DNA of 64,000 nt from Nitrosomonas eutropha (GTDB taxonomy: Bacteria > Pseudomonadota > Gammaproteobacteria > Burkholderiales > Nitrosomonadaceae): contig NZ_QICQ01000009.1 in NCBI RefSeq assembly GCF_003201195.1, positions 1 to 64,000 on the forward strand. The letters are read 5' to 3'. This document shows positions 14,363-52,824 of the stretch, piece by piece; the stretch's first letter is position 1; every line of letters begins with the position of its first letter. The notes beneath the pieces were generated by a model that was not told the origin of the DNA, made no database searches, and saw nothing but the letters and a program-made list of their open reading frames with translations. The position numbers were made by a program, and so were the translations under genes.

Positions 14363-14365
14363 AGG

Positions 14366-24788: not shown

Positions 24789-24800
24789 GGCTTTCTCCAT

Positions 24801-37351: not shown

Positions 37352-37381
37352 AAAAATACTTCCTCCAGAAATGAGTAATTT

Positions 37382-37416
37382 CTGGCTGGCTGGCGTAGTG
37401 CTGGCTGGCTGGCTGG
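37382..37416. repeat. CTGG tetranucleotide repeats upstream of the haem receptor
   Basis: Three CTGG units (37382-37393), a 7-bp break and four more units (37401-37416) lie 31-65 bp upstream of the receptor start on the minus strand. Such tracts can slip during replication; here the copy number is low and the tract is outside the coding region. Confidence 0.6.
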
Positions 37417-37447
37417 AACAGCGGTTTTTGTTGCCACGGTAATGTTT

Positions 37448-39169
37448 TTAGTTATTGATGGCTTCCTCGTGCTGCTTTATTCCTTGTTGAATTTGTTCAT
37501 CGACCCATTGCGTGAACAAGGGGTGAGGCGCAAAACCTTCTCCCAGTTCGAATTTGAGTCCCTCCAGGAATTTTTTTTCTGGACCAGTACTGGTTGTGCG
37601 TGCGGGGATGACGATGGCTGTGCCCCCTTGTTTGTTGGCTTCGGTTACCATGGCTCTTGTTTTTTTAACCCAGGGCGCACGTTTTTTTGGCCAATCTTCG
37701 CGCCAGGTGGCAACCTTGAATGCTTTGAAATTTTCACCGCCATTGCTGCGTATTTGATGGGTGATGTTTTCCAGATTTTGCAACCATTTATCGTTGTGCT
37801 GATCATCCTGCGCGCCGTGCGCAGTCAGAATGACAGTTTCTTTAGATGGATCCTTGGAGAGCGCAAGTACACGATCAAACAGTGCTTTTGCAAATAGGGG
37901 GCTATCCTCATAACCGCCTGTCCAGATGGCCGGTAAGGATGTCAGGATCCTGGGAACGGGTTTGCTGGATTCTCCATGTCCGTGCTTGCCATGTCCATTC
38001 TGTGTTTTGCTGTTGGCTATAGCTTGCTTGGTTTCAGGATCCTCGATATCCATCCCGACCAGGTGTGCGATTTCCTTACGGAATGAATTTTTGGTTGCGA
38101 AGGCACTGACGATAATTGCTGCTTTGGCGCCGCGCTGCTCCAGCTTGTGCAGTGCATGTTCGATTGTAAGAGGATCCGCCATGGAAAAGGCAAATTCGAT
38201 TTTGTAGCGATCCATCAGGGGGTGTACTGCTGTACGCAGATTCTCATTCCAATGAAAATCAGAACCATGAGCAAACAGGATAACGCCGGTATCTTCTGCT
38301 GCCAGGGGCAGATGACGATTAGCTTCCCGCTTCATCCACATCGTCAGTTGCTGTGGTTCGATTCCAAAGTTATTGAGTACTGCATTCTGAGGTAGCAGCT
38401 GTTTCAGTCGTGCGTCGAGCGACATCATGCTGTCATGTTTGGGGCCCAGAGCAAACAAGATAACCTGGTTCTTGCTATTTTTAATGGCCGGAAGAGATGT
38501 CAGTACGTTGGAAAGTTTTCGTTTTATACTATTCATGTAGCCTTCCGGAGATTCGTTTTCTGATCTTTCCGGAAGGATCAGGGCATTGATCGAACGAAAA
38601 TTGATTCCTGCTGATGCCTGTTTGATAATTCGCATCCAGTCGTTATACATCGCACGTCTGTCCTTATCATTTTGTGCGCCAAAACCTACTACAAGTAGGT
38701 TTTGACGGGCCGTATGTTCCATGGTGCGCAACCAGGCGGCGAGCGCCTCAACTGCGAAATAACTTTCACCATAAGGTTGCGCAAAAATAGTGGGGGCAAT
38801 TTTATTTTTCTGCGTGATCAGCTGATAAATGAGTTGATAATGCGGTTCTGCTGCAGAAATAAACAAAGGCAATACCACAATACGGCTGACATTGCGGCTA
38901 TGCAGGCTGGCCAATGCAGATTGCAGGGTTTGCTGGGTACGCTCGTCAGTAACGAATACCAGTGCTGCCGGATGATTGACGGAGAAAGGTAAGAATGCTT
39001 CGCGGATCTCCTCGTTGCCCACAAAGCCTCGATCGGCTGTAATCACCAAAAAACCGGTTTGATCTGTCGATTCTGTATTGGTCGCATACGCCTCGCCGGT
39101 ACTTGGCAGAACAAATACCAATAAATAAAGCGACATAACAGTTTTTACTGTTCTAATTCCAAAAGACAT
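37448..39169 (-). CDS. Exported double CbiX-like protein with His-rich linker
   Basis: A 573-residue protein with a signal peptide (TVMSLYLLVFVLPSTGEAYA) and two tandem CbiX/SirB-like regions. In the first, the usual strand 'LVxHGS' is replaced by LVITADRGF (residues 41-49), so the catalytic His is absent. In the second, VILFAHGSDFHWNENLR (His301) and VILTAHGAQDD (His451) keep it. A His-rich stretch GHGKHGHG (392-399) lies between them. Known CbiX enzymes insert Co or Fe into sirohydrochlorin in the cytoplasm; an exported one next to a haem receptor suggests periplasmic metal or tetrapyrrole handling. Start 39169 has GGAGAAAGC before it. Confidence 0.8.
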   Translation of the reverse strand: MSFGIRTVKTVMSLYLLVFVLPSTGEAYATNTESTDQTGFLVITADRGFVGNEEIREAFLPFSVNHPAALVFVTDERTQQTLQSALASLHSRNVSRIVVLPLFISAAEPHYQLIYQLITQKNKIAPTIFAQPYGESYFAVEALAAWLRTMEHTARQNLLVVGFGAQNDKDRRAMYNDWMRIIKQASAGINFRSINALILPERSENESPEGYMNSIKRKLSNVLTSLPAIKNSKNQVILFALGPKHDSMMSLDARLKQLLPQNAVLNNFGIEPQQLTMWMKREANRHLPLAAEDTGVILFAHGSDFHWNENLRTAVHPLMDRYKIEFAFSMADPLTIEHALHKLEQRGAKAAIIVSAFATKNSFRKEIAHLVGMDIEDPETKQAIANSKTQNGHGKHGHGESSKPVPRILTSLPAIWTGGYEDSPLFAKALFDRVLALSKDPSKETVILTAHGAQDDQHNDKWLQNLENITHQIRSNGGENFKAFKVATWREDWPKKRAPWVKKTRAMVTEANKQGGTAIVIPARTTSTGPEKKFLEGLKFELGEGFAPHPLFTQWVDEQIQQGIKQHEEAINN

Positions 39170-39241
39170 GCTTTCTCCGTGTTGTGTTATGAATCGAAAA
39201 ATAAGAAGAGCAAAAACTGACCAGCAGATAACGTTCAGCAC

Positions 39242-40543
39242 CTACGCCGTGGTTTCGGGTAGCAAGCTAGATAAATTATTGATGCTGGCTTCGCCTGCTG
39301 CAATTTTTGCTAATGCCGTGGCGAAGCTGGAAATGCCTGTTCCCTTGAACAATAAACAAGGCTTGCGCCCCAGGCGGCAAAGTCTTTTGATCTGATAGTA
39401 GGCAGCATGGCTGACGCAATCAGTCGGGCAAATCACCGCTGTGGCGCCGTATACCATTTCCGGTAAGCGGGATAACGCATCTTCCTGTCCGCCGTCATGA
39501 TGTGACAATTTGAAGCCAAACTGTCTGGCAAGTACGCGGTAGTGTGGTAGTTGTGCCGATCGACCGCCCACGCACAGAATGCAGTCGTAAGAAGCAGTGG
39601 GGGCATCAACTATATCGGCTGACTCTTTATCCATGGTATGAGTGGCACTAAAAGCCAGCAGCAGATTCTCCAGTGTATCTCGCTCGGTATGGAGGGTATC
39701 CCGTTCGCGATAAAGTTCAGTCAGATTGTGGCAGGCTTTTTTGAGTGATCGCTTGAGTTCATCAGCTTGAGCGACCTTGATTTGCAGTTGCTCGTTTTCT
39801 GTTGTCAGCAGCATCAGGCGCTGCCCCATACTGATCATGGTGTAGCCGGATTCCAGCATTTTCAGGCGCTGACGCAGGGTGTCATCTTCCCGTCGGGATT
39901 GCTGTAATTGCCGAATTTCTACAGTCGCCTGTTCCAGCCGCTGGCGTAAGCGCAATTCGGTCTGCGCGTGTTTTCCCTTGGTCAGCTCCAGTTGCTCGGT
40001 CAGCTCCTTCAGTGTCTGCTCTGTTTGACTTACCCGATTCTGCATAGCCGAAAGCTTGGCGACTGCTTCATGCATGTGCATATGAACCGTATCGTGAATT
40101 TCCTCCCTGGTTTCAGAACTGATGCGCTTGTGGGTAAGTGCTGCCCACAGAGGCCCGGCTACTTTCCCGTTGGAAAAGTGTGTTCTCCAAAGTGTCAATA
40201 CCTCGTTGTCAGTTTTGGCTGCCTCGAATTGTTTGATATAGCTCCGATGCAATCTGTCCAGACGCTTATGAATCGTTTCTGATACGGCATTTCTGGATGT
40301 TGCGCAGCAAACCGCCTCGACATGTAGAGCATGTGCGTTATTTGTTGGAGCATTAAAGTGAAAATGTCTGGCAAAGCATTCAAGATCTGAAGGAGGAAGG
40401 CAAAGGCCGATAACAGGGCAGTGATGGGTTCTGTCCAGCTCCCAGAGTTTCATGCGTTTTACAGGAGGCGTATGGATGTCGATTGTTTTTTCAGGTAATA
40501 AGCTATTGATTCCCGACTGTCGCAGAATTGCTGGTGCATGCAT
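39242..40543 (-). CDS. DUF2325 protein with coiled coil
   Basis: A 433-residue cytoplasmic protein. The middle (about residues 155-300) is a long heptad-rich coiled coil; the C-terminus is a DUF2325 domain with ILCVGGRSAQLPHYRVLARQ and AVICPTDCVSHAAYYQIKRL. A strong AAGGAG site 8 bp upstream fixes the start at 40543. Read leftward it is followed by the CbiX-like gene (72 bp) and the haem receptor. Function unknown; the paralogue at 31048 lacks the coiled coil. A Fur-like box lies 62 bp upstream of the start. Confidence 0.86.
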   Translation of the reverse strand: MHAPAILRQSGINSLLPEKTIDIHTPPVKRMKLWELDRTHHCPVIGLCLPPSDLECFARHFHFNAPTNNAHALHVEAVCCATSRNAVSETIHKRLDRLHRSYIKQFEAAKTDNEVLTLWRTHFSNGKVAGPLWAALTHKRISSETREEIHDTVHMHMHEAVAKLSAMQNRVSQTEQTLKELTEQLELTKGKHAQTELRLRQRLEQATVEIRQLQQSRREDDTLRQRLKMLESGYTMISMGQRLMLLTTENEQLQIKVAQADELKRSLKKACHNLTELYRERDTLHTERDTLENLLLAFSATHTMDKESADIVDAPTASYDCILCVGGRSAQLPHYRVLARQFGFKLSHHDGGQEDALSRLPEMVYGATAVICPTDCVSHAAYYQIKRLCRLGRKPCLLFKGTGISSFATALAKIAAGEASINNLSSLLPETTA

Positions 40544-40605
40544 GCGGTATCTCCTTGTGGTGAAAATATCGATCTGAATCAAATTAGACAATATGAAATA
40601 AGAAT

Positions 40606-40624
40606 GATACTAATTATCATTGGC
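40606..40624. promoter_or_regulatory. Fur-like box in the divergent region
   Basis: GATACTAATTATCATTGGC matches the inverted Fur consensus at 15 of 19 positions and contains AATGATA/TATCATT arms. It sits between the leftward DUF2325-cbiX-receptor set and the rightward propeller gene. It is closer to the former (62 bp). Confidence 0.6.
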
Positions 40625-40692: not shown

Positions 40693-40709
40693 TGCGACAA
40701 TTTGTCGCA
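40693..40709. promoter_or_regulatory. 17-bp palindrome, copy 1
   Basis: TGCGACAATTTGTCGCA, a perfect dyad (8-bp arms around one T), lies 48 bp upstream of the propeller gene at 40758. The identical 17 bp recur at 44743. Position and sequence identity point to the binding site of a dimeric regulator. The arms loosely recall GCGNC-type response-regulator sites (PrrA/RegR), but the regulator is not identified. Confidence 0.65.
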
Positions 40710-40757
40710 TTTTCATTCTTTTTTGAATCAGTTATTCTCTGATTTTTGATGTAAATC

Positions 40758-41999
40758 ATGAAGAAGTTAATGTTTTCTCTCCCTGCACTGGCTGGATTAT
40801 TTTTCACACTTGTTCCCACGGTTACGGTCGCAACTGGGCTAAGTGCCAGTAGCTCAACACAGCAACCGCTTGCAGTGCCTGCCTCAAAATCCTCCAGATC
40901 TGCACTTGGGGTAGGGGTAATGCTGGATCAGGAAGGGCGGTTATGGTTGGCAAAAGTAGCTAATCAACACTTGCTGGTTTCCAGGTCAGAAGATGACGGA
41001 AAGCATTTTTCTGAGCCTGTGACCGTTACTCTTGCACCGGAAAACATAGCCAACGATGGTGAAAATCGCCCCAAGATTCAGGTTGTAAGTGATGGTACGG
41101 TGCTTGTCACCTGGACACAGCTACTAACAGAAAAATATGCCGGAAATATAAAGTTCTCCCGTTCAACCGATTTAGGCCGGACTTTCTCAGAGCCGGTCAT
41201 TCTGAACGATGATGGTCGTATGACCAGTCACCGTTTCGATTCCCTTGCCATTGATGGCAAGGGAAGAGTAGTAGTGGCCTGGCTGGATGCAAGAGACCGT
41301 GATACAGCGCGGGGAAAAAATGAAGAGTTCAAGGGTGTTTCACTCTATAGCAGTCAATCATTCGACAATGGTGCGCACTTCGAGCCCAATCGGCAGATTC
41401 ACCAGCATACCTGTGAGTGTTGCCGGACTGCTCTTACCTGGACCAGTGAGGGGCCAGTTGTGCTGCTGCGGAATATTTTTAGCGCCAACACCCGTGATTT
41501 CGCCGTGGTTAATCTGGACAAGACGGAAGAGGGGGCAAGAAGAGTTACCCATGATGAATGGCAGATCGATGCCTGTCCACATAACGGCGGCAGTCTTGCG
41601 ACAGACAGCAAAGGGCAATTGCATCTGACCTGGTTTACCAATGGTACAGCCGGCTCAGGCCAGTTCTATAAACGGATCAGTGGCAACCTTGAGTCGAAAC
41701 CCATGGCGCTGGGGGATATAGATGCCCAGCCCAACCACGCCGCAGTGGTAGCACATGGTGAAACCATCCTCCTCACCTGGCGTGAATTTGACGGGAACGT
41801 CTATTCCGCAAAAATGATGTTTTCAAATAATGGTGGCGAGACGTGGAGTGAGCCATGGCGCCTGATGTTATCTGCTGGTGCAAACGATTATCCGCTGCCA
41901 CTAATTAGCAATGATAAAGCCTTGGTTGTATGGAATACCGACAATGAAGGGCTGCGAATTCTACCCGTTGAAAGAGTAATTAATCGATCCGGCAGCTGA
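40758..41999 (+). CDS. Secreted Asp-box (sialidase-like) beta-propeller protein
   Basis: A 413-residue exported protein (signal peptide MKKLMFSLPALAGLFFTLVPTVTVATG). Asp-box repeats of the BNR type recur: SEDDGKHF (77-84), STDLGRTF (136-143), SFDNGAHF (201-208) and SNNGGETW (356-363), giving a six-bladed propeller fold. Sialidase catalytic residues are not evident. Two unusual motifs are TCECCR (Cys219, 221, 222) and DACPHNGG (Cys273, His275), both conserved in the paralogue at 47118. These could bind a metal or haem, or form disulfides. A TonB receptor gene follows 119 bp downstream. Likely substrate binding or processing for that receptor. Confidence 0.8.
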   Translation: MKKLMFSLPALAGLFFTLVPTVTVATGLSASSSTQQPLAVPASKSSRSALGVGVMLDQEGRLWLAKVANQHLLVSRSEDDGKHFSEPVTVTLAPENIANDGENRPKIQVVSDGTVLVTWTQLLTEKYAGNIKFSRSTDLGRTFSEPVILNDDGRMTSHRFDSLAIDGKGRVVVAWLDARDRDTARGKNEEFKGVSLYSSQSFDNGAHFEPNRQIHQHTCECCRTALTWTSEGPVVLLRNIFSANTRDFAVVNLDKTEEGARRVTHDEWQIDACPHNGGSLATDSKGQLHLTWFTNGTAGSGQFYKRISGNLESKPMALGDIDAQPNHAAVVAHGETILLTWREFDGNVYSAKMMFSNNGGETWSEPWRLMLSAGANDYPLPLISNDKALVVWNTDNEGLRILPVERVINRSGS

Positions 42000-42118
42000 A
42001 AGCCATCTTCAAAACAACAATAAACAGCAGACAACTTATGACATGTATCACAAATTAGTGATACGGCATCAGGCATTGCTGCAAATTTAATCACAAATCT
42101 GAAAGGATGGCTCAAACC

Positions 42119-44608
42119 ATGAAGCAATTTCCTCTGACATTGATCGGCCTGTTTTGTGCAGTATCAAGTTACGCTGCTCCGGGTGATGGTTCACCTGGAA
42201 AGCAAGCTCAGAGTGAGAGTAACAGGGAGTATGCGGGAGAGCAATTGGCGCAAGTGGCTGAATCAGGCAGTAATGCAGGTGCTGATAAGGAAAAAGGGAA
42301 GAAGAAAAAGGCAGGTGAGATTGCCCCACAAAACAGAACAGTTTTCAGGGAAATGGTGGTGACAGGCGAGATAGAGCGAGATTCGCGCTTTACTTCACCT
42401 TCAATGCGTGTAACTCGGACGCAGGTCGAGCAGCAGAATGCGCAAACTACGGAAGAAGTACTCAAATACATGCCCAGCCTGCAAATACGTCAGCGTTATG
42501 TGGGTGATCCGAATGGTGTGCTGGGGATCCGCGGGGCAGATATGTTTTCAACTGCGCGCAGCATGGTTTATGCCGATGGTCTACCGCTGCACAACTTTCT
42601 GCAGGCTTCTTTCAATGGTGCACCACGCTGGTCGCTGGTCGGGCCGAACGAGATCGATTCGGTTGATATTGTTTATGGTCCTTTCTCGGCCGAGTACAGT
42701 GGCAACTCGATAGGGGGAGTCGCCAATATTAGAACACGTATGCCGAACAAGCAGGAGTTTTACTTTGAAGGCAGCTTGTTCATTCAGCCTTACGAAAATT
42801 ACGGATCGGATAAGGGAACATTTATCGGTGATCGGCAGTATATTTCCTACGGTAACCGGATACAGGACAAATTTACGGTGTTTTTGGCCTATAACCGGCT
42901 GGAAGCCCAGGGTCATCCGCAGTCCTATTTTATCGACAACACCGGATTGTTCAACGTCCCCGGAGGGACACCGGTGACGGGGGGTATCAGGACGCCGGAT
43001 ACGCGTGGCACGCCCAGTATCATTTACGGTGATACCGGCCCCGAGAAAGTGAATACTCACTTGTTCAAGGGGAAATTCGGATATGACATTACTTCTGACT
43101 TGCAAGCGCTGTTTACCGTGGCGTATGAAGAACGTACGCGCAACCAGAACCATCCCAATAACTATCTGCATACAGCAAACGGTAATTATTTCTGGGGAGG
43201 AAGTTCACCTGTCTGTAACTCAGTTGTCACCTGTTCAAATCCGGGCAATGCTTCCCTGGATGGCACCCGTTTCGACGTGGTGCGAAATGGTTTTGGCAGT
43301 AGCCGCGACAAACGCGAGACATTGAATCTGGGTTTGTCGCTGCGCGGTGCGCTAACGCCTGGCTGGGATGTCGATACCACGCTCAGCTATTTCGATGTGT
43401 TAAAGGATATTCGTGCGGCTGCATTTTTCAATCATGCTGATCCAGGCAATACCGGTGCCGGGCAATTGCAGGATTTTCGTAAATTCAACTGGTGGAATTA
43501 CGATCTCAAGCTGAGTACACCGATGTTGCTGGGTTACGACAAACTGTCGTTCCTGACCGGATACCATTTTGACCAGTACAACCTTAGTTTCCGGCAATAT
43601 AGCCTGACCAATTATGATGATCTGACCCGGGGTGCGTTGCAGACTAATCGCAACAATGATGGTCGCACATCGACCCATGCGATCTTTGCACAATCGATGT
43701 TCCGTTTCCTGCCGGACTGGGATATTACGGCTGGTGTGCGGCAGGAATGGTGGGAAGCAAGCAAAGGAGTCGCTTCCAACGTGGTGGTGCCGGATCGTAC
43801 CGAGACAGCCACTTCTCCCAAGGTTTCACTGGGATATGAACCCCGGCAGTGGAAATTCCGCTATTCCTTCGGACGCGCGCACCGCTTCCCGGTGATTGCG
43901 GAGCTTTTCCAGTCACTCGGTACACCTACCAGTATTCTGACTGCAAACGCTCTACTCAAACCTGAAAATGGCGTGCACCATAACTTTATGGTGGAGTACG
44001 GGCTGCCGAAGGGTTATGCCCGTATTAACGTATTCCGGGATGACATCAAGGATGCCATCCGCCAGATCACTTCCGCCTCAGGAGTACTTACAACCAGTGC
44101 ATTCCAGAATATCGGCGAAGTTGGCACAACCGGAGTGGAGCTGATCTTCGAACAGAGAAATATTCTCGGTACACGATTTGATTTCATGTTCAACGGAACC
44201 TGGATGAATTCAAAAGTGGAAGAGGGGCCAGTTGTGAAATTTACCGAATCAACCGGTGTGTCTGCCAACTACAGCTTGACCGGAAAACAGGTTATTCGCC
44301 TGCCGCATTGGCGAGCCAACTTTTTCGGCACTTATCATGTGACGGATGCCTGGGACGTTTCCTTATCTGGCCGCTATACCAGCGATTCATATAACGACCC
44401 TGATAACAGAGATCATGTGAACAAGGTATTTGGTTCCCAGAGTGATTTTTTCTTCATGGATTTCAAAACCAGTTACCGGTACCGGTTCAATAACGGGTTG
44501 AAAAGCCGGTTTTCGTTCGGCATCAGCAACCTCAACAATGACAAGGCATGGGTATACCACCCCTATCCGCAACGTACTTATCTGCTTGAGGCAGCGTTTA
44601 GTTATTGA
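42119..44608 (+). CDS. TonB-dependent receptor (propeller-linked, copy 1)
   Basis: An 829-residue outer-membrane receptor. The signal peptide is MKQFPLTLIGLFCAVSSYA, followed by a charged linker with KEKGKKKKAGE. The plug has REMVVTGEIERD, MPSLQIRQRYVGD and IVYGPFSAEYSGNSIGGVANI. The barrel ends YLLEAAFSY. The start at 42119 is preferred because it begins the signal peptide; ATG 42107 sits too close to AAAGG. The ligand is unknown. It follows the propeller gene in the same direction and is probably in one transcript with it. Confidence 0.88.
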   Translation: MKQFPLTLIGLFCAVSSYAAPGDGSPGKQAQSESNREYAGEQLAQVAESGSNAGADKEKGKKKKAGEIAPQNRTVFREMVVTGEIERDSRFTSPSMRVTRTQVEQQNAQTTEEVLKYMPSLQIRQRYVGDPNGVLGIRGADMFSTARSMVYADGLPLHNFLQASFNGAPRWSLVGPNEIDSVDIVYGPFSAEYSGNSIGGVANIRTRMPNKQEFYFEGSLFIQPYENYGSDKGTFIGDRQYISYGNRIQDKFTVFLAYNRLEAQGHPQSYFIDNTGLFNVPGGTPVTGGIRTPDTRGTPSIIYGDTGPEKVNTHLFKGKFGYDITSDLQALFTVAYEERTRNQNHPNNYLHTANGNYFWGGSSPVCNSVVTCSNPGNASLDGTRFDVVRNGFGSSRDKRETLNLGLSLRGALTPGWDVDTTLSYFDVLKDIRAAAFFNHADPGNTGAGQLQDFRKFNWWNYDLKLSTPMLLGYDKLSFLTGYHFDQYNLSFRQYSLTNYDDLTRGALQTNRNNDGRTSTHAIFAQSMFRFLPDWDITAGVRQEWWEASKGVASNVVVPDRTETATSPKVSLGYEPRQWKFRYSFGRAHRFPVIAELFQSLGTPTSILTANALLKPENGVHHNFMVEYGLPKGYARINVFRDDIKDAIRQITSASGVLTTSAFQNIGEVGTTGVELIFEQRNILGTRFDFMFNGTWMNSKVEEGPVVKFTESTGVSANYSLTGKQVIRLPHWRANFFGTYHVTDAWDVSLSGRYTSDSYNDPDNRDHVNKVFGSQSDFFFMDFKTSYRYRFNNGLKSRFSFGISNLNNDKAWVYHPYPQRTYLLEAAFSY

Positions 44609-44922
44609 GCCCAAATAATCCGCTCGCCGTTATTCGGCGTCCTGATGGATTATTGGGATTGAAGTTACGGGTAATCAAGATATATGTCATCTGGTAAAAA
44701 CCCTGTTGCCAGCTACGTCTCCAGGCCATGTTTAGCTCGGGGTGCGACAATTTGTCGCATTGAGATGCCTTTCTGGCCGGCTTATGATTGAGGCGCTCAG
44801 TATGGGTCATCCTATAAGGGAGCTTCTAAAATGGGTTCCCGGTTGAATTTTACGCTTCATTCCGCACAACCAGATTTTTAGGGGTATCCATCAGTTTTAA
44901 AGCTTTCAAAACAGGGAAAAAT
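44609..44922. promoter_or_regulatory. Intergenic region between the two receptor units
   Basis: 314 bp without a gene. It holds copy 2 of the 17-bp palindrome (listed separately) about 165 bp upstream of the next receptor, so it is probably the promoter region of the second unit. I see no Fur-like box and no strong terminator after the first receptor. Confidence 0.5.
44743..44759. promoter_or_regulatory. 17-bp palindrome, copy 2
   Basis: Identical to copy 1 at 40693 (TGCGACAATTTGTCGCA), and the flanking TTTGTCGCATT also matches. It lies upstream of the receptor gene at 44923, the first gene of the second receptor-propeller unit. The chance of an exact 17-bp repeat 4 kb apart with the same relation to related genes is very small. 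Confidence 0.65.
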
Positions 44923-47052
44923 ATGAAAGGCAGAAAAATCAAACAAAAACAAAAATGGGGATTGGGAGTCGAAAAAATCGGTTACGGCAAGTCTCTAATG
45001 CCATTGACGGTTGCGGTAACCGGGGTGCTGGCAGCTGTTGCACCCATCTGGGTACAGGCGCAAAGTACGGATGAATCGATACAACTGAAAACAATCCAGG
45101 TGATAGCACCAGAGATAGAGCCAGCGATCACGGTACAGAGCTTGCCAGAAGCAAAACGTGCCATGCGCCGGGTGCCGGGTGGCGCCAATGTGGTTGATAG
45201 CGAAACGTATGCCACGGGCCGTGCTTCAACAGTGCAGGATGCGCTGGGGTATTCGCCTGGCGTATTTGTCCAGTCTCGTGCCGGTGCTGAAGAGTCCCGC
45301 CTGTCGATTCGTGGCTCAGGTATACAACGCACATTCCATTTGCGCGGCATCAAGATTTTGCAGGATGGTTCACGGCTGAATCTGGCCGATGGCGGGGCGG
45401 ATTTTCAGGCAATCGAGCCCTTGGCTACCCGCTATATTGAAGTGTTCCGGGGAGGTAATGCACTGCAGTATGGATCAACCATGTTGGGAGGCGCGATCAA
45501 TTTCGTTACGCCGACTGGTTACGATGCGGAGCGTTTCCGCGCGCGGGGGGAGGCGGGTAGTTTTGGTTATAACCGCCTGATGGCTTCTTCTGGTGGCGTG
45601 CATGGTTCGCTGGATTATTTTGCCAGTGTTTCCCGTTACAGTCAGGATAGTTTTCGTGATTGGGCTGCTACCGATAACTGGCGTATGTTCAGTAATGCGG
45701 GATACCGTATCACCCCCGATCTGGAAACACGTTTTTACTTGACCTATGTTAAATCCGACTCGCAACTGCCAGGCAATCTGACCAAAGCGCAATTAAAATC
45801 TGATCCCAGGCAGGCGAATGCGTTTAGTCTGTTTGGACGACAAAAACGTGACATTGATCTTATCCGGGTGGCTAACCGTACCGTACTCAAACTGGGGAAC
45901 AGCCAGCAACTGGAATTTTCCGGATTCTACTCACACAAGAATCTGTGGCATCCCATTTACCAGGTGCTATCCCAACCCACCAATGATTATGGCGTGGGAT
46001 TACGCTATATCAATGAAATGCCGATTGCGAGTTATCGTAACCGTTTTGTGCTGGGTTTCGAACCGAGCTGGGGCAATGTCATGGATAACCGTTTCAAGAA
46101 TGATGGCGGTAATGCGGGTGCGCGCACTGCCAAATTTGATCAACATGCCAGCAGCTATGTTGTTTATGGAGAAAATCAGTTTTATTTGCTGCCGGAACTG
46201 TCGTTGATTGCTGGCGCACAATATACTTACACGACACGCAAACAAAAGGATCTGTTCATGGCCGGCGGGGTGGATCAGAGTAAGAGCAAAAACTATCAGC
46301 GCTTCACTCCCAAGGCGGGGCTAATTTATGAATTGAATCCAGATGTGCAATTTTTCAGTAATGTTAGCACCAGTTTTGAGCCACCCAGTTTTGCCGAGTT
46401 GACCAGCGGACCAGTTCAGGCACCGACATTTGCTAAAGCGCAGCGTGCCATTACGTTTGAGGTAGGCAGCCGGGGCCGGTTATTTAATATGGCTGAGTGG
46501 GATGTGGCACTGTACCGTGCGCATGTGCGCAATGAATTGCTTGCGCTGGTGGATCCTGCTACCAGCTCCCCAATAGGTACGGCCAACGCAGATAAGACCG
46601 TGCATCAGGGGATTGAACTAGGTTTGGATGTGGAACTGGCAAAAATGCTTTACCTGCGCCAGATGTATATGTTCAGCGATTTCAAATTTGATAAGGATGC
46701 CGTTTTCGGCAATAACCAGCTGGCCGGTATTCCGCGTCATTTCTATAAAGCCGAGCTGACCTATCGCCACGCTGACGGTTACTATATTGGTCCGAATGTG
46801 GAATGGTCGCCGCAGAAGTATTACGTGGATCATGCCAATACGCTCTCGGCTGATTCCTACGCACTGCTGGGCTTTAAAATTGGCAAACGGAGCAAAAGCG
46901 GATTCTCCTGGTTTGCCGAGGCACGCAATCTGACCGATCGCAAGTATGCCGCTACTACGGGCGTAGTGGAGAATGCAAGAGGTATCGATCAGGCCCAATT
47001 CCTGCCGGGAGACGGGCGCTCCTTCTTTGCCGGTCTGGAATATCGAATGTAG
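44923..47052 (+). CDS. TonB-dependent receptor (FecA-like, propeller-linked, copy 2)
   Basis: A 709-residue outer-membrane receptor with a long basic leader (MKGRKIKQKQKWGLG) before the hydrophobic signal core. The plug is FecA-like: RASTVQDALGYSPGVFVQSR, SRLSIRGSGIQRTFHLRGI and YIEVFRGGNALQYGSTMLGG. The C-terminal strand is FFAGLEYRM. It has no FecR-interacting signalling extension, so it is not a self-regulating receptor. Ferric-siderophore uptake is usual for this subgroup, but the ligand is not shown. The propeller gene follows after 65 bp, then the thioredoxin-like gene, forming a three-gene unit. Confidence 0.9.
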   Translation: MKGRKIKQKQKWGLGVEKIGYGKSLMPLTVAVTGVLAAVAPIWVQAQSTDESIQLKTIQVIAPEIEPAITVQSLPEAKRAMRRVPGGANVVDSETYATGRASTVQDALGYSPGVFVQSRAGAEESRLSIRGSGIQRTFHLRGIKILQDGSRLNLADGGADFQAIEPLATRYIEVFRGGNALQYGSTMLGGAINFVTPTGYDAERFRARGEAGSFGYNRLMASSGGVHGSLDYFASVSRYSQDSFRDWAATDNWRMFSNAGYRITPDLETRFYLTYVKSDSQLPGNLTKAQLKSDPRQANAFSLFGRQKRDIDLIRVANRTVLKLGNSQQLEFSGFYSHKNLWHPIYQVLSQPTNDYGVGLRYINEMPIASYRNRFVLGFEPSWGNVMDNRFKNDGGNAGARTAKFDQHASSYVVYGENQFYLLPELSLIAGAQYTYTTRKQKDLFMAGGVDQSKSKNYQRFTPKAGLIYELNPDVQFFSNVSTSFEPPSFAELTSGPVQAPTFAKAQRAITFEVGSRGRLFNMAEWDVALYRAHVRNELLALVDPATSSPIGTANADKTVHQGIELGLDVELAKMLYLRQMYMFSDFKFDKDAVFGNNQLAGIPRHFYKAELTYRHADGYYIGPNVEWSPQKYYVDHANTLSADSYALLGFKIGKRSKSGFSWFAEARNLTDRKYAATTGVVENARGIDQAQFLPGDGRSFFAGLEYRM

Positions 47053-47117
47053 CATATTCATTCTTCCTGCTGGCCAGTTCGGCTGGCAGGTTGGTATTTA
47101 ACTTAAATGGAGTGAAA

Positions 47118-48356
47118 ATGTCGATTAAACATCTCATTACAGCAATCTTTATGGCTGTAATTTCTGCAGCAATTCCTTTTACTGAGGCGGCAGAACATGC
47201 CCATGACGCCAAGGCAGCAAAACCCAAGCATGATATGAACAAAATGTGGGCAGAAATGCGTACTCGGGCAGTTGGCATGGCTGTTTCCGTGGCGGCCGAT
47301 GAAAAGGGAGTATTGTGGCTGGCACGTATGCAGGATGGCCATCTCAAAGTGAGCCGCTCTGAAGATAATGGCAAGCATTTTTCCGAAGAGGTGACTGTCA
47401 ATCCACAACCAGAAGCAATTCTGGCGGAAGGGCAGAATCGACCTAAGATCGCGGCACGTAACGGCGTCATTGTCGTCACCTGGGTGCAGGCATTACCAAA
47501 GGTGTTTTCCGGCAATGTCCGTTTTGCTCGTTCAGTGGATGAGGGCAAGACTTTTTCAGCGCCGGTGACAGTCAATGATGATCACGAAGAAACCAGCCAT
47601 GGTTTCAGTACATTGACACTGGATGATCGTGGCCATGTAACAGTGGCCTGGTTTGATGGACGTGAGCGCGATGCAGCCGTCAAATCCGGGCAGGAATATA
47701 TTGGCAGTACCGTTTATTACGCAGTGTCAGAGGATGGAGGGGCGAGTTTTTCTGCAAATCGTAAACTGGCAGATCATGCGTGCGAGTGCTGCCGGATCAG
47801 CATGACACTGGGGGTTAATGATACCCCGTTTGTTTTCTGGCGTCATATCTTCGATGGCAGCATGCGCGACTTTGCACTGGCGCGATTGGGTGCACAACCC
47901 AGGGTAGTTCGGGCCAGTGAGGATGGCTGGGAAATTAATGCCTGTCCGCATCATGGGGGGGATATTGCGGCAGATGCAGTGGGTGACATTCATCTGGCAT
48001 GGTTTACCGGTAATTCGGAGCATCCTGGATTATTCTATCGGCGTATTGATGGTGAAAAAATGACTACAACTACCCCCCATGCATTTGGTGATCTCGACTT
48101 TCAGCCAGGTCATCCCGTTGTATTTGCGCATGATAAACAAGTGTTTCTGGCCTGGCGCGAATTTGATGGTGACAATTACCGGATGATGACCTCTGTTTCG
48201 GCAGATCGGGGCGATACCTGGTCAACAGCGCGCATCGTGGCAACAACCAGTGGTGCAGCAGATTTACCGATATTTGTAACAGATGCGCACAAACCGCTTG
48301 TTGTCTGGAACAGTACGCAAGACGGGATACGTCTTTTTGATGTGGGAGGTGATTAA
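47118..48356 (+). CDS. Secreted Asp-box beta-propeller protein, paralogue 2
   Basis: A 412-residue exported protein (signal peptide MSIKHLITAIFMAVISAAIPFTEAA) with a His/Met-rich mature start (HAHDAKAAKPKHDMNKM). Asp boxes include SEDNGKHF (81-88), SVDEGKTF and SEDGGASF. It shares with the protein at 40758 the motifs ACECCR (Cys222, 224, 225) and NACPHHGG (Cys276, His278), and aligns with it over the full propeller. ATG 47118 is preferred over 47091 because GGAGTG precedes it. Its stop overlaps the next gene by 1 bp (TAATG), so translation is coupled to the thioredoxin-like protein. Confidence 0.82.
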   Translation: MSIKHLITAIFMAVISAAIPFTEAAEHAHDAKAAKPKHDMNKMWAEMRTRAVGMAVSVAADEKGVLWLARMQDGHLKVSRSEDNGKHFSEEVTVNPQPEAILAEGQNRPKIAARNGVIVVTWVQALPKVFSGNVRFARSVDEGKTFSAPVTVNDDHEETSHGFSTLTLDDRGHVTVAWFDGRERDAAVKSGQEYIGSTVYYAVSEDGGASFSANRKLADHACECCRISMTLGVNDTPFVFWRHIFDGSMRDFALARLGAQPRVVRASEDGWEINACPHHGGDIAADAVGDIHLAWFTGNSEHPGLFYRRIDGEKMTTTTPHAFGDLDFQPGHPVVFAHDKQVFLAWREFDGDNYRMMTSVSADRGDTWSTARIVATTSGAADLPIFVTDAHKPLVVWNSTQDGIRLFDVGGD

Positions 48357-48856
48357 TGATGCGTCGCTTACTATGTATATTGCTGCTGGTAGTGGCAGGT
48401 GCTGCTTCGGCAGCGGATAACTTGCGTCCCTTTGTGTCCGGCAGCATGGCGCAAATTCAGGAAGAGTATGCTGGCAAGCCTTTTGTGATGTTTCTCTGGT
48501 CGCTGACCTGTACCTACTGTCCAACCGAACTGGAAATGCTTGGAAAATTCAAGTGGCAGCATCCAGAGCTGAATCTGGTGTTGATTGCAACGGATACACC
48601 GGAGGATAGGCCGGAAATCGTTTCTCATCTTGCCGGCTACGGATTAAGTGAGATTGAGAGTAACTGGGTATTTGCTGAAGATATGCCTGAACGTTTGCGT
48701 TTCGAGATTGACCGCCGCTGGTATGGTGAAGTGCCGCGTACCTATTTTTATGATCAAGCACATGAACGCCTGGTCAAGACCGGTCTGGTCGGTGAGGCAT
48801 TTGTCAAGAAATGGCTGACGCTTGTCAGCATGAATACACCATCGACAGGCAAGTAA
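48356..48856 (+). CDS. Periplasmic thioredoxin-like protein (TlpA type)
   Basis: A 166-residue exported protein with signal peptide MMRRLLCILLLVVAGAASA. The thioredoxin fold starts KPFVMFLWSLTCTYCPTELEML; the redox pair is Cys52-x-x-Cys55 (CTYC). A cis-Pro occurs in GEVPRTYFYD. It is translationally coupled to the propeller gene upstream, so a plausible task is to reduce or isomerise the propeller's clustered cysteines. This is an inference; heme-lyase type TlpA proteins are an alternative. Confidence 0.85.
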   Translation: MMRRLLCILLLVVAGAASAADNLRPFVSGSMAQIQEEYAGKPFVMFLWSLTCTYCPTELEMLGKFKWQHPELNLVLIATDTPEDRPEIVSHLAGYGLSEIESNWVFAEDMPERLRFEIDRRWYGEVPRTYFYDQAHERLVKTGLVGEAFVKKWLTLVSMNTPSTGK

Positions 48857-49037
48857 TCCATACCCGTACTTTTCCGATCAGATCTATGTATAGCTGATCT
48901 GCAGCCGGTTTTCGTTCTTTTTAGTTGGGCAGCTTGCTCTTTAGGGCTCATGCTTGTAATCTTTTTTATCAGGCCCAATCCTGCTCTAGTTGCGGCAGGT
49001 GGTGTCTGGCCTGAAATTTGACCATGCGGGAGGTGTC

Positions 49038-51557
49038 TTGAGCAATCCATTCATTGTTAGAAAGGCTGCAGTACTGGGGGCGGGAGTTATGGGTGCTCAA
49101 ATTGCAGCACATCTGGTTAATGCCAACATAGAGACATTACTGTTCGAATTGTCGGCCGAATCGGGCAATCCCGATGCCAATGTACTGAAGGCGATCAACA
49201 GACTGAATAAACAGGACCCTTCTCCCCTATCGGTAATTGACCGGGCAAGCTGTATTGAACCCGCCAATTACGAGCAACATCTGGAAAAGCTGGGTGAGTG
49301 CGATCTTGTGATCGAAGCGATTACCGAACGGCTGGAGCTGAAGTCGGAGTTGTACGAAAAAGTTGCACCCTATCTGAATAATCAGGCCATTCTGGCCAGT
49401 AATACTTCTGGTCTTTCCATCAACCAACTGGCTGCAGCCGTTCCCGAGGCCCTGCGACCGCGCTTTTGCGGCATTCATTTCTTTAATCCACCCCGTTACA
49501 TGTATCTGGTGGAATTGATCCCAGGAAAACAGAGTGATCAAGGCGTACTTGATGCACTGGAAAGTTTCCTGGTGACCAGTCTGGGTAAAGGTGTTATCCA
49601 CGCCAAGGATACGCCCAACTTTGTTGCCAACCGGGTAGGGGTCTTTTCCATGCTGGCGACCATGCATCATGCCCGGCAATTCGGTTTGAATTTTAGTCTG
49701 GTGGATAAGCTGACTGGTAGGTTGATCGGGCGGCCGAAAAGTGCAACCTTTCGTACTGCTGATCTGGTCGGACTGGATGTGCTAACGCATGTCGTACAAA
49801 CCATGCAGAACAGCCTGACAGAGGATCCCTGGCATGCGCATTACGCTGTTCCCGACTGGTTGCAAAGACTGGTTAATCAGGGCGCACTCGGACAGAAGAG
49901 TGGCAAGGGGGTTTATCAGAAGCAGGGCAAGGAAATCCATGTGTTGAATCCGGATACGGATACGTATCAACTGGCGCAGAACGAAGTTGACAGCGAAATC
50001 GAAGCACTGTTGAAACAGAAAGATCCTGTAGCCCGGTTTGTGGCGTTGCACGATCATCCCCATCCGCAGGCCCGATTTCTGTGGGCGATTCATCGTGATC
50101 TGTTCCATTATTGTGCCGTCCATTTGGAATCAATTGCCCATAATGCACGTGACCTTGACCTGGCGATACGCTGGGGATTTGGCTGGCAACGGGGCCCTTT
50201 CGAGATTTGGCAGGCAGCGGGATGGAATACGCTTGCTGGTTGGATAGCAGCGGATATTGCTGCTGGCAAAGCCATGGCTGCAACGCCGCTGCCAGCTTGG
50301 GTGCAGGTGGTTGGACAGAGTGCTGCTCAGGGAGTACACGCACAGGAGGGCTCCTATGCGCCGGTGGCGAACAATTTGCAGCCACGTTCGCAGTTGCCGG
50401 TGTACCGGCGTCAGCTATTCCCGGACAGGCTGGTTGGCGAGGAAAGGGTCTATGGTGAAACAATTCTGGAAACAGACGCACTGCGCATGTGGCATACCGG
50501 AGATCAGATTGCCATCGTCAGTTTCAAAACCAAGAAGCATACTATTGATAATCTGGTTCTACAGGGGATGCAACAGGTTATCACTGAAGCCGAGCGTCAT
50601 TTTCGCGCATTGGTAATCTGGCAGACCGAACCGCCATTCTCACTAGGTGCCAATCTGCAAAAGGCGGCAGAAAAACCGAAAACAGAAGTATCGCAAGCTC
50701 CCTTGGCACCTCCGGCACCACCTTCAGCATTTGATCTATTTATCCGGAAATTCAAAAAGTCTGCACAGTCCACCATTCTGCAAGCAGCCCGCAGCCTGGA
50801 TATAGCCGACAAGTTAATGGCTGGAAAACTGGCTGAAGTGGAAGTGATGATTGCTCATTTTCAGCAGATTTCGCAGCAGCTTCGCTACAGTATGATACCG
50901 ACCGTTGCTGCGGTCGATAATATGGCGTTGGGTGGAGGGTGCGAGTTTGTCATGCACTGTGATCGCGCGGTAGCAACACTGGAAACCTACATTGGCCTGG
51001 TTGAGGCGGGTGTAGGGCTGCTGCCAGCCGGAGGCGGGTGTAAGGAATTTGCCTTGCGCGCCGCGCGTAATGCGATTGATGGGGACCCTTTCCTTTATCT
51101 AAAGCATTATTTTCAGACGGTGGCTATGGCACAACTGGCTAAAAGTGCAGAGCATGCAAAGGCATTGCATTATCTGCAGCCTGCTGATGTAGTTGTCATG
51201 AATCGTCTTGAATTACTGCACATTGCCAAGGCGCAGGCGCTTGCGTTGGCAGAGACCGGGTATCGTCCGCCATTGCGTCCGCGTGAAATCGTAGTGGCAG
51301 GGGCAACGGGAGCTGCTACGATCAAAAGTAATATGGTCAACTTGCTGGAAGGTGGCTTTATTTCCGAGCATGATTACCTGATTGGCAGCAAGATCGCGCA
51401 TGTTATGTGTGGCGGTGATATTGTCGCGGGCAGCCGGGTGGATGAAGAGTGGTTGCTGAAGCTTGAGCGTACAGCATTCATTGAGCTGCTGGCGACCGAG
51501 AAGACTCAGGATCGCATTGCGCATACGCTGAAAACCGGTAAACCGCTGCGCAACTGA
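49038..51557 (+). CDS. fadB: 3-hydroxyacyl-CoA dehydrogenase / enoyl-CoA hydratase fusion (FadN/FadB-like)
   Basis: An 839-residue fused beta-oxidation enzyme with the dehydrogenase first, the opposite of E. coli FadB and like Bacillus FadN. The NAD-binding site is VLGAGVMGAQIAAH (residues 12-25), and FFNPPRYMYLVELI carries the catalytic Glu. The hydratase/isomerase part comes last, with MALGGGCEFVMHCD and EAGVGLLPAGGGCKE. The start is TTG 49038, preceded by GGGAGG, which begins MSNPFIVRKAAVLGAG; the frame is open further upstream but without a start. The thiolase gene follows 64 bp downstream. Confidence 0.92.
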   Translation: MSNPFIVRKAAVLGAGVMGAQIAAHLVNANIETLLFELSAESGNPDANVLKAINRLNKQDPSPLSVIDRASCIEPANYEQHLEKLGECDLVIEAITERLELKSELYEKVAPYLNNQAILASNTSGLSINQLAAAVPEALRPRFCGIHFFNPPRYMYLVELIPGKQSDQGVLDALESFLVTSLGKGVIHAKDTPNFVANRVGVFSMLATMHHARQFGLNFSLVDKLTGRLIGRPKSATFRTADLVGLDVLTHVVQTMQNSLTEDPWHAHYAVPDWLQRLVNQGALGQKSGKGVYQKQGKEIHVLNPDTDTYQLAQNEVDSEIEALLKQKDPVARFVALHDHPHPQARFLWAIHRDLFHYCAVHLESIAHNARDLDLAIRWGFGWQRGPFEIWQAAGWNTLAGWIAADIAAGKAMAATPLPAWVQVVGQSAAQGVHAQEGSYAPVANNLQPRSQLPVYRRQLFPDRLVGEERVYGETILETDALRMWHTGDQIAIVSFKTKKHTIDNLVLQGMQQVITEAERHFRALVIWQTEPPFSLGANLQKAAEKPKTEVSQAPLAPPAPPSAFDLFIRKFKKSAQSTILQAARSLDIADKLMAGKLAEVEVMIAHFQQISQQLRYSMIPTVAAVDNMALGGGCEFVMHCDRAVATLETYIGLVEAGVGLLPAGGGCKEFALRAARNAIDGDPFLYLKHYFQTVAMAQLAKSAEHAKALHYLQPADVVVMNRLELLHIAKAQALALAETGYRPPLRPREIVVAGATGAATIKSNMVNLLEGGFISEHDYLIGSKIAHVMCGGDIVAGSRVDEEWLLKLERTAFIELLATEKTQDRIAHTLKTGKPLRN

Positions 51558-51621
51558 GTGATTTGGAGTTGCGGAAGATGGGCGTGATGAAATAAAAATT
51601 CAAGTATTGAAGGAGAAACTG

Positions 51622-52824
51622 ATGACCAGGCAAGTGCAGGAGGCTTATATCGTAGCCGCTACACGCACACCGGTAGGTAAAGCGCCACGGGGCATGTTCA
51701 AGGATGCTCGGCCGGACGACATGTTAGTGCATGTGCTGCAGGTAGTGCTGAAACAGTGTGCAGGGCTGGATCCGGCAGCGGTTGAAGATGTTATCGTCGG
51801 TTGTGCCATGCCGGAAGCGGAACAGGGGATTAATGTGGCGCGCGTAGCACTGCTGCTGGCTGGTCTGCCGGTTAGCGTGCCGGGTGTAACAATTAATCGG
51901 TTTTGCGCTTCCGGCCTGCAGGCGGTTGCCATGGCAGCCGACCGGATTCGGTTAGGTGAAGCGGATGTCATCATTGCTGGCGGCACCGAAAGCATGAGTA
52001 TGGTGCCGATGATGGGTAACAAAGTGGCGATGAACCCGGCTTTATTTAAGCCAGAGAGTGAACAGGTAGCCATTGCTTATGGCATGGGGATTACTGCCGA
52101 AAAGGTGGCGGAACAATGGAAGGTCAGCCGTGAGGCGCAGGATGAATTTGCACTGGAAAGCCATCACCGTGCGATTCGCGCCATCGAACAAGGGGAATTC
52201 AGGGATGAAATTTCTCCTTATCCCGTTCATGAAGACCGGCCGGACCTGAATACGCACGAAATCCACGATTTCTCCGTTATCAGGGATACTGACGAGGGAC
52301 CCCGGGCGAATAGCAGCCCGGAGGCACTCGCCCGGTTACGTCCGGTGTTTGCAGCACGAGGATCTGTCACGGCGGGTAACAGCTCGCAAATGTCGGATGG
52401 AGCAGGTGCGGTGGTGGTGGCGAGCGAGGCAGCTTTGCAGCGCTTTAATCTGACACCGATCGGGCGATTTATTGGTTATGCGGTGGCTGGTGTGCCGCCG
52501 GAAATCATGGGGATAGGACCCGTCGAGGCGATTCCTAAAGTGCTGAAACAAACCGGCATCAAACAGGATGAACTTGACTGGATTGAGTTGAACGAGGCAT
52601 TCGCTGCGCAAAGTCTGGCTGTTATCCATGATCTCGGATTGGATCGGGCAAAAGTTAATCCACTGGGTGGGGCCATTGCACTGGGTCATCCACTGGGTGC
52701 AACCGGTGCGATTCGCGTGGCAACATTACTGAGCGGATTACGTCGTCACAAACTCAAATATGGCATGGTCACCATGTGCATTGGCGGCGGAATGGGAGCG
52801 GCAGGCGTATTTGAAGCGCTATAA
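51622..52824 (+). CDS. fadA: Acetyl-CoA acyltransferase (thiolase)
   Basis: A 400-residue thiolase that cleaves 3-ketoacyl-CoA in the last step of beta-oxidation. Active-site residues are Cys95 (NRFCASGLQ), His356 ([11 protein letters not shown]) and Cys386 (TMCIGGGMG). The AAGGAGAAACTG site and ATG 51622 fix the start. It is the second gene after the fused dehydrogenase/hydratase, and a strong terminator follows directly. Together with fadE and fadD at 20.6-24.8 kb the set for fatty-acid degradation is complete except for the electron-transfer flavoprotein. Confidence 0.95.

What the first reader, a model, noticed from the sequence alone, without database searches (positions are those of the whole stretch)
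40693..48856. Two TonB-receptor / cysteine-marked propeller units with a shared operator
Seen directly: two secreted Asp-box propeller proteins (40758, 47118), each next to a TonB receptor, share TCECCR/ACECCR and DACPHNGG/NACPHHGG motifs not expected of sialidases. One is coupled by TAATG to a thioredoxin-like protein with CTYC. Inference: the Cys/His motifs bind a metal, haem or ligand, or form disulfides tended by the Trx partner, so this could be an undescribed uptake module.
Basis: partly seen in the sequence, partly recalled or inferred. Interest (0 to 1): 0.75.

Follow-up and report, generated by a model that had tools for sequence, protein, structure and literature searches.

The report
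Paired copper-uptake modules with cysteine propellers
Two neighbouring gene sets in an ammonia-oxidising bacterium each pair an outer-membrane nutrient gate with a little-known cysteine-marked secreted protein, and relatives in other bacteria suggest that they bring in copper, perhaps under the control of a redox-sensing switch.

Summary
Two secreted propeller proteins (A 40758-41999, B 47118-48356; 44% identical) each sit beside a TonB receptor. B overlaps a thioredoxin-like gene (TAATG, CTYC). An identical 17-bp palindrome precedes both units.

Four cysteines (CxCC and the C of CPH) are kept in 118 of 118 full-length homologues; the His in 103. A receptor lies within 5 kb in 77 of 80 near and 17 of 17 distant loci, the thioredoxin in 60 and 14. 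In distant proteobacteria this set lies in copper operons (DUF2946, PCuAC, YcnI, CopCD), and other homologues sit beside CopC or multicopper oxidases. Best reading: a TonB-dependent copper-acquisition module whose propeller handles copper in the periplasm. The window's own units carry no known copper gene.

The palindrome is a regulon operator. In this genome it also precedes an OprC-like receptor and a TonB-ExbB-ExbD operon. In 12 of 12 other genomes examined the best-matching site lies just before regB, pointing to the redox regulator RegBA; yet no strict site stands there in the window's genome or its four europaea-group relatives.

TonB copper import is known; the propeller's part and the RegBA link were not found in the papers searched. 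Metal binding is inferred.

The parts
40693..40709 (.). operator copy 1, TGCGACAATTTGTCGCA, 48 bp before propeller A
40758..41999 (+). secreted propeller A (413 aa)
41412..41426 (+). CECCR codons of A (C219-R223)
41574..41582 (+). CPH codons of A (C273-H275)
42107..44608 (+). TonB-dependent receptor A (833 aa); the commonest type among receptors beside propellers (59 of 90)
44743..44759 (.). operator copy 2, identical 17-mer, 163 bp before receptor B
44923..47052 (+). TonB-dependent receptor B (709 aa); nearest solved structures YncD and PqqU
47118..48356 (+). secreted propeller B (412 aa), AlphaFold2 mean pLDDT 87.8, read as seven blades
47781..47795 (+). CECCR codons of B (C222-R226), loop before the inner strand of blade 4
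47943..47951 (+). CPH codons of B (C276-H278), loop before the inner strand of blade 5
48356..48856 (+). exported thioredoxin-like protein with CTYC; its start overlaps the stop of B (TAATG)

Best explanation
These are two TonB-dependent copper-acquisition units. A receptor brings copper, probably as a chelate, across the outer membrane. The secreted propeller (B, and its paralogue A) handles the copper in the periplasm through an invariant Cys4 cluster at the top of its hub (CxCC plus the Cys of CPH). The exported thioredoxin keeps those thiols reduced or reduces the metal centre, and a separate TonB-ExbB-ExbD operon under the same operator supplies energy. The operator is most likely the binding site of the redox response regulator RegA (RoxR/PrrA/ActR family). 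Shown: gene content, motif invariance, synteny of relatives with copper genes, operator conservation and its place before regB in other genomes. Inferred: copper as the cargo of these two units, metal binding by the Cys4, the thioredoxin's role, and RegA binding.
For: (1) The same receptor-propeller-thioredoxin order lies in copper operons of unnamed distant proteobacteria: DUF2946-TBDT-PROP-TRX-PCuAC-YcnI-CopCD (L250, L251, L253) and DUF2946-TBDT-PROP-TRX-PCuAC (L249, L252, L246, L255, L256); Pfam confirms PCuAC, DUF1775, CopC, CopD and DUF2946 in the proteins scanned, which come from L251, L253, L255 and L216. 10 of 17 distant loci have a copper gene within 5 kb, 7 of 14 if the three loci that gave queries are left out; five of the 17 are one genus. 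(2) Other propeller homologues lie beside multicopper oxidase genes, some also near plastocyanin or heavy-metal P-type ATPase genes, on Roseobacter-group plasmids, beside CopC with amoCAB about 5 kb away in Methylomagnum, beside a multicopper oxidase and RND efflux genes in Runella; these are 6 records opened of 65 with a match. CopC stands beside the propeller in 4 of 12 paralogue loci, one also with a receptor, thioredoxin and ExbB. (3) In the same genome the operator precedes a receptor whose six solved relatives are all OprC, with a CxxxM aligned, a TonB-ExbB-ExbD operon and a PepSY_TM operon. (4) A copper-repressed DUF2946-TBDT-PepSY_TM operon and its copper-importing receptor are published (PMC9426467, PMC12914433). 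(5) Cys4 in 118 of 118; CxxC in 81 of 81 thioredoxin-type partners. (6) Best site just before regB in 12 of 12 genomes examined, 13-14 of 14 positions in 11, 12 of 14 in one; eight of the twelve were examined without prior knowledge of a site there; a RegA homologue in 17 of 17 genomes that have sites.
Against: In the near family only 5 of 80 loci have one of the copper genes sought within 5 kb, and the window's units have none beside them, so copper is carried over from relatives and from the regulon. The two receptors do not pass the copper-receptor model (A 28 bits against 472; B not listed); nor does the OprC-like one (125 bits), whose haem-receptor score is higher (164 bits, below its cut-off). 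No Met or Cys is conserved among receptors paired with propellers, only two His in the A type (H487 83%, H818 78%). Regulon targets include a FecI-FecR-FecA-like unit (sigma and FecR by my reading), usually an iron system. No operator stands before regB in the window's genome, and the strict sites listed for G011, G016, G020 and G035 are not near their regA. Two site-free genomes have a RegA about 50% identical. The clustering of the cysteines is read from strand order, not from coordinates.
Confidence: 0.64

Rival explanations
1. Periplasmic copper tolerance or storage rather than uptake: the propeller buffers excess copper and the receptor is incidental.
For: The more distant plasmid homologues opened (Roseobacter group, Runella) sit in copper-resistance-like islands with no receptor found beside them.
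Against: A receptor lies within 5 kb in 77 of 80 near and 17 of 17 distant loci, and ExbB in 45 of 80 near loci; a DUF2946-headed receptor operon is copper-repressed where tested (PMC9426467).
Confidence: 0.13
2. Iron or haem uptake: both units are ordinary ferric-chelate systems and the propeller is a ligand-binding partner.
For: Receptor A scores weakly to haem receptor models (105 bits, cut-off 317); the operator also precedes a FecI-FecR-FecA-like unit; the neighbouring leftward operon is a haem receptor unit.
Against: The leftward haem operon has its own Fur-box-like palindrome (40603-40621; recognised from memory) while the two units have a different operator. In the six plasmid records opened the annotated neighbours are copper, other metal or general genes, not iron uptake genes; iron genes were not searched for.
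Confidence: 0.09
3. Uptake of PQQ or another organic cofactor, by analogy with E. coli YncD/PqqU and the seven-bladed YncE.
For: Receptor B's best solved relatives are YncD and PqqU (133 and 132 bits); YncE is among the structural matches of propeller B (Z 24.6, rmsd 3.0, 284 aligned).
Against: Receptor B is far below the PqqU model's cut-off (160 against 1200 bits); receptor A and several other paired receptors are of other types; relatives of the propeller lie with copper genes.
Confidence: 0.06
4. The cysteines form structural or redox disulfides tended by the thioredoxin and bind no metal, while the module still serves copper.
For: Thioredoxin-type partners have a CxxC in 81 of 81 and lie near the propeller in 60 of 80 near and 14 of 17 distant loci.
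Against: The four cysteines stay invariant in plasmid homologues where no thioredoxin match was found nearby; CxCC is an unusual pattern for simple disulfides (judgement).
Confidence: 0.3

Closest known systems
CruR-CrtA(BfrG)-CrpH operon of Bordetella pertussis (PMC9426467, PMC12914433, PMC13038864)
   Same: TonB-dependent receptor in a copper-regulated operon; DUF2946 genes stand by propeller operons in distant relatives; a PepSY_TM gene belongs to the regulon in Nitrosomonas; PMC9426467 lists AhpC_TSA, PCuAC, YcnI and CopC genes in such operons
   Different: No propeller is mentioned in the text searched (supplements and figures not seen); regulation there is by a copper-sensing upstream ORF, here by a DNA palindrome; membership of the receptors in the CrtA subfamily was not tested
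pcuABCDE of Bradyrhizobium japonicum (original paper not held; from recall and from PMC8424229 and PMC12617631 passages)
   Same: TonB receptor with PCuAC, YcnI and a CopD-type membrane protein, as in loci L250, L251, L253
   Different: The window's units lack PCuAC, YcnI and CopCD; whether pcuABCDE itself holds or neighbours the propeller could not be checked
OprC/NosA copper receptor (TIGR01778)
   Same: An OprC-like receptor in the same genome carries the same operator
   Different: The two receptors of the finding do not pass the model, nor does the OprC-like one reach its cut-off
E. coli YncD(PqqU)/YncE
   Same: TonB receptor and a periplasmic seven-bladed propeller (gene pairing recalled); receptor B resembles YncD
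   Different: Propellers share a fold at 12% identity; other cargo
BNR/Asp-box sialidases, PLL lectins, GH145, CylK
   Same: Propeller fold; Asp boxes in the BNR group
   Different: Invariant CxCC and CP motif; copper-gene neighbourhoods of relatives
RegBA/PrrBA/RoxSR/ActSR redox two-component systems
   Same: Operator before regB in 12 other genomes; half-sites resemble the RegA consensus GCGNC..GNCGC as recalled
   Different: RegBA control of TonB copper modules was not found; no such site before regB in the window's own group

Membership tests
TonB-dependent copper-acquisition operon | TonB-dependent receptor in the unit | tested here: met
   plug and barrel in both receptors
TonB-dependent copper-acquisition operon | copper chaperone, sensor or oxidase gene (PCuAC, YcnI, CopC, DUF2946, MCO) in the same unit | tested here: not met
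   not in the window's units; met in 10 of 17 distant and 5 of 80 near loci
TonB-dependent copper-acquisition operon | copper-responsive expression or copper transport | not testable with these tools
   no experiment; only regulon content and synteny
OprC (TIGR01778) | score over the curated cut-off | tested here: not met
   receptor A 28 bits, receptor B not listed, cut-off 472
PqqU (NF041535) | score over the curated cut-off | tested here: not met
   receptor B 160 bits, cut-off 1200
CrtA subfamily | sequence membership and its invariant His | not tested
   no CrtA sequence was compared
BNR/sialidase-like propeller | BNR_2 profile | tested here: met
   32.8 and 41.5 bits, cut-off 31.4
GH33 sialidase | six-bladed fold | tested here: inconclusive
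   DSSP strands read as seven blades (my reading) and the top structural matches are lectins, GH145 and CylK, but sialidases also match
GH33 sialidase | catalytic Arg triad, Tyr/Glu, Asp | not tested
   -
RegA (RoxR/PrrA) regulon | RegA-type response regulator in the genome | tested here: met
   G000:C37 RegB-like kinase (255 bits, under the model's 350 cut-off) and a regulator with NMHRRTLQRKL near its end
RegA (RoxR/PrrA) regulon | operator shared with the regBA promoter | tested here: inconclusive
   found in 12 of 12 other genomes examined (one at 12 of 14 positions); not found in the window's genome, and no strict site near regA in G011, G016, G020, G035
RegA (RoxR/PrrA) regulon | binding of phospho-RegA to the site | not testable with these tools
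   -

The most novel reading that the evidence does not exclude
The propellers are a new family of periplasmic copper proteins with a Cys4 copper or copper-redox site at the hub of a seven-bladed propeller, serviced by a dedicated thioredoxin and loaded by exchangeable TonB receptors; in nitrifiers and iron oxidisers the module is switched by RegBA, linking redox state to copper scavenging.
Probability: 0.35. Interest if true: 0.8.

Novelty: new variant of a known kind. Interest (0 to 1): 0.62.

Why it matters
Ammonia monooxygenase needs copper (established knowledge), and how ammonia oxidisers gather it is poorly known. The data name a candidate copper route, a protein family annotated in the plasmid records as 'sialidase family protein', 'exo-alpha-sialidase' or 'hypothetical' that carries an invariant Cys4 signature, and a candidate regulator. 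Each is directly testable in culturable Nitrosomonas. The same family lies in pcu-like operons of other proteobacteria, where deletion of the receptor PcuB had no detectable phenotype (as told in PMC12617631, passage), so it may supply a missing periplasmic step.

Tried and rejected
Zur or another Fur-family regulator for the operator: one Fur-family protein passed in G000, and the Fur-box-like palindrome sits elsewhere, so set aside; yet N. europaea is reported to have three fur homologues (PMC3050691, abstract), so the search may have missed some, and a Fur-family gene (my reading) stands beside one site in one relative (L180). The TetR gene beside the OprC-like receptor: found in 10 of 22 genomes, 7 of the 17 with sites, rejected. 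Sialidase function: solved-structure hits only at E 0.027-0.1, fold matches nearest to lectins, CylK and GH145. A Met or Cys metal site in the receptors: none conserved. Searches for the propeller in copper uptake listed no paper whose title or abstract start describes it; six copper papers opened gave zero 'propeller' hits in the main text: PMC9426467, PMC9973294, PMC6769254, PMC12914433, PMC12617631, PMC13038864. Supplements and figures were not seen, and the protein could stand there under another name. A library search for the RegA consensus found nothing, so that consensus is recalled. Searches gave nothing on the propeller.

Rows dropped before counts: one search used homologues over 60 bits and 300 aa; 5 of 123 were dropped: one 353-aa Runella protein that does carry CxCC and CP, and four pieces without them (a 231-aa piece of A in N. 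eutropha Nm24, a 61-aa contig-end piece, and one 224-aa ORF counted in two overlapping loci, L221 and L259). Some queries come from the loci counted (PCuAC from L253 and L255, DUF2946 from L251 and L255, MCO from L112 and L115, CopC from L215, L216 and L253), so those rows match by construction. One search counted fewer partners (61 receptors and 29 thioredoxins in 70 loci) because its gene calling missed some; one search supersedes it. In one search some operons were taken as starting at the propeller although a receptor precedes it, so 49 of 71 may be low (for example L067, whose site lies further upstream). The CxxC count is by pattern in ORFs over 45 bits.
Full report
What is there. The window belongs to a Nitrosomonas of the europaea/eutropha group: its propeller B is 94% identical to that of G035, which matches N. 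eutropha Nm24, and 88% to that of G020, which matches N. sp. HPC101. Five genes on the + strand form two units. Unit A is operator 40693-40709, propeller A 40758-41999 and TonB receptor 42107-44608. Unit B is operator 44743-44759, TonB receptor 44923-47052, propeller B 47118-48356 and a thioredoxin-like protein 48356-48856, whose ATG overlaps the stop of B. Both propellers and the thioredoxin begin with signal-peptide-like stretches (read from the sequence). Pfam sees BNR_2 in both propellers and plug plus barrel in both receptors. The own genome holds no third copy at E 0.01.

The cysteines. In an alignment of A, B and 50 relatives, C222, C224, C225, R226, C276, P277, H278, G280, H161 and H292 (B numbering) are among the invariant columns. 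Across 118 full-length homologues, from near relatives, distant proteobacteria, paralogues and plasmids, all four cysteines, P277 and G280 are kept in 118 of 118. H278 is kept in 103 of 118 (83 of 86, 14 of 16, 5 of 11 and 1 of 5 by group) and H161 in 102 (84, 7, 7, 4). So the signature is a Cys4, not a Cys3-His. The thioredoxin-type partners have a CxxC in 81 of 81.

Fold. AlphaFold2 gives propeller B a mean pLDDT of 87.8 and pTM 0.86. I read the DSSP strands as seven blades. CxCC lies in the loop before the inner strand of blade 4, CPH in the loop before that of blade 5, and H161 in the loop before that of blade 3, all of the type that meets at the top of the hub. That these residues cluster is an inference from strand order; coordinates could not be read. 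Foldseek and VIA-align put the model nearest to PLL lectins, GH145 enzymes and CylK (TM about 0.55-0.6 for the first two; Z 26-31, rmsd about 2.8-4.1 over 303-356 residues); sialidases match too. E. coli YncE is also matched (Z 24.6, rmsd 3.0, 284 aligned).

A recurring module. Around 80 near relatives, in Nitrosomonas, Nitrosospira, Nitrosovibrio, Thiobacillus, Gallionella, Sulfuricella, Rhodocyclales and others (the best 80 of 180 found), a TonB receptor lies within 5 kb of the propeller in 77 of 80, the thioredoxin in 60, ExbB in 45 and TonB in 44 (one search shows gene order). A profile search of 398 Pseudomonadota genomes found the family in 17, own genome included, at E 1e-12. Of the 17 loci taken from the 16 other genomes (one genome gave two), 17 of 17 have a receptor and 14 of 17 the thioredoxin. 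The receptors differ: of 90 adjacent receptors, 59 resemble receptor A most, 20 receptor B, and 11 two others. One kind of periplasmic propeller thus goes with several receptor types.

Why copper. Pfam confirms the copper families in the proteins scanned. Ten of 17 distant loci have one of these genes within 5 kb, 7 of 14 without the loci that gave queries; one of the seven (L259) rests on a weak DUF2946 match, and five of the 17 loci are one genus. Six plasmid records of 65 with a match were opened: four Roseobacter-group ones have multicopper oxidase genes near the propeller homologue, Runella a multicopper oxidase and RND efflux genes, and Methylomagnum a CopC gene next door and amoCAB about 5 kb away. 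The Methylomagnum locus resembles the copper-limitation-induced cluster CRC3 of Methylococcus capsulatus, with copC and a ZnuABC-like transporter (PMC4831470, passages); whether CRC3 holds a propeller was not checked. Four of 12 paralogue loci, mostly Nitrosomonas, have CopC beside the propeller; one also has a receptor, thioredoxin and ExbB. Published work shows that a DUF2946-TBDT-PepSY_TM operon is repressed by copper through the nascent DUF2946 protein (PMC9426467: abstract, passages and section 10) and that its receptor imports copper (PMC12914433: abstract and passages). Against this, only 5 of 80 near loci carry one of the copper genes sought, and the window's own units carry none.

The operator. 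The strict pattern TGYGRCAWWWTGYCRCA occurs 7 to 15 times in each of nine Nitrosomonas genomes (8 in the window's own), and 6 and 2 times in two more, never as the reversed control. In propeller operons it is found, at 13 of 14 positions or better, in 49 of 71, control 0 of 71. In the window's genome it precedes both modules, a TonB-ExbB-ExbD operon, a receptor whose six solved relatives are all OprC, a PepSY_TM gene and a FecI-FecR-FecA-like unit; in relatives it also precedes secreted proteins that would start with His after signal cleavage (ExbB, ExbD, FecI, FecR and the cleavage are my reading). Which protein binds it? A RegA homologue, the response regulator of the RegBA/RoxSR type, is present in 17 of 17 genomes with sites; of the site-free genomes, G040 and G050 (listed again as G456) lack it, and G457 and G459 have one about 50% identical. 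In four genomes (G005, G034, G451, G455) a strict site lies at the regBA operon; the chance estimate for four or more such coincidences, with an assumed 500-bp target, was 2e-8. Eight further regBA loci were then taken without knowing of a site there: 7 of 8 have one at 13 of 14 positions, the eighth 12 of 14. In all 12 loci the best-scoring site of the roughly 4-kb stretch lies some 20 to 250 bp upstream of regB; reversed-pattern best scores in the same stretches are 10-12. Against this, the window's own regB has no such site, and the strict sites listed for the other europaea-group genomes G011, G016, G020 and G035 are not near their regA. The half-sites GYGRC-N5-GYCRC resemble the RegA consensus as I recall it.

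Mechanism. The likeliest picture: a copper chelate passes the receptor with energy from the co-regulated TonB-ExbB-ExbD; the propeller takes up copper at its Cys4 hub; the thioredoxin keeps the thiols reduced or reduces the metal; copper then goes to chaperones and cuproenzymes such as AMO and haem-copper oxidases. Gene content, invariance, synteny of relatives and operator facts are shown; the cargo, the binding site, the thioredoxin's task and RegA binding are inferred.

Novelty. TonB-dependent copper acquisition is known. The propeller with its Cys4 and the RegBA link were not found in the searches named. Papers seen as passages only: PMC4831470, PMC9693385, PMC6769254, PMC3050691, PMC9973294, PMC8424229, PMC12617631, PMC13038864 (some with their abstract start in a listing). 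The pcuABCDE paper was not held and is known from recall and the passages cited.

Noticed in passing
35258-40591 (minus strand): Leftward unit: haem/haemoglobin receptor (TIGR01785, 541 bits, over cut-off), an exported CbiX/ferrochelatase-like protein (597 aa) and a DUF2325 protein, with a Fur-box-like inverted repeat at 40603-40621; could be a haem uptake unit with a periplasmic chelatase.
   Followed up: partly
L069:3949-4641; G035:C19:381412-381933: Propeller A appears broken into pieces in N. eutropha Nm24 while B is intact.
   Followed up: no
L215:2145-4913: One 923-aa open frame with a HupE/UreJ domain followed by a TonB receptor plug and barrel, ahead of thioredoxin, propeller and CopC.
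   Followed up: partly
L147, L151, L152, L191, L193, L194, L197, L200: Small secreted proteins near operator sites, several of whose mature N-terminus would be His (AHTR, AHDG and similar, by my reading); no Pfam match in the four scanned (L151, L193, L197, L200). Possibly His-brace-like.
   Followed up: partly
L181:2681-4999, L142:720-1121: Exported CobN-like proteins (my reading of the sequence, no family search) near operator sites.
   Followed up: no
11583-15367: Haem-copper oxidase subunits III, I and II in the same window.
   Followed up: no
20617-24800 and 48990-52824: AMP-binding and acyl-CoA dehydrogenase genes and, by my reading, FadB-like and thiolase genes: an apparent beta-oxidation set in an ammonia oxidiser.
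   Followed up: no
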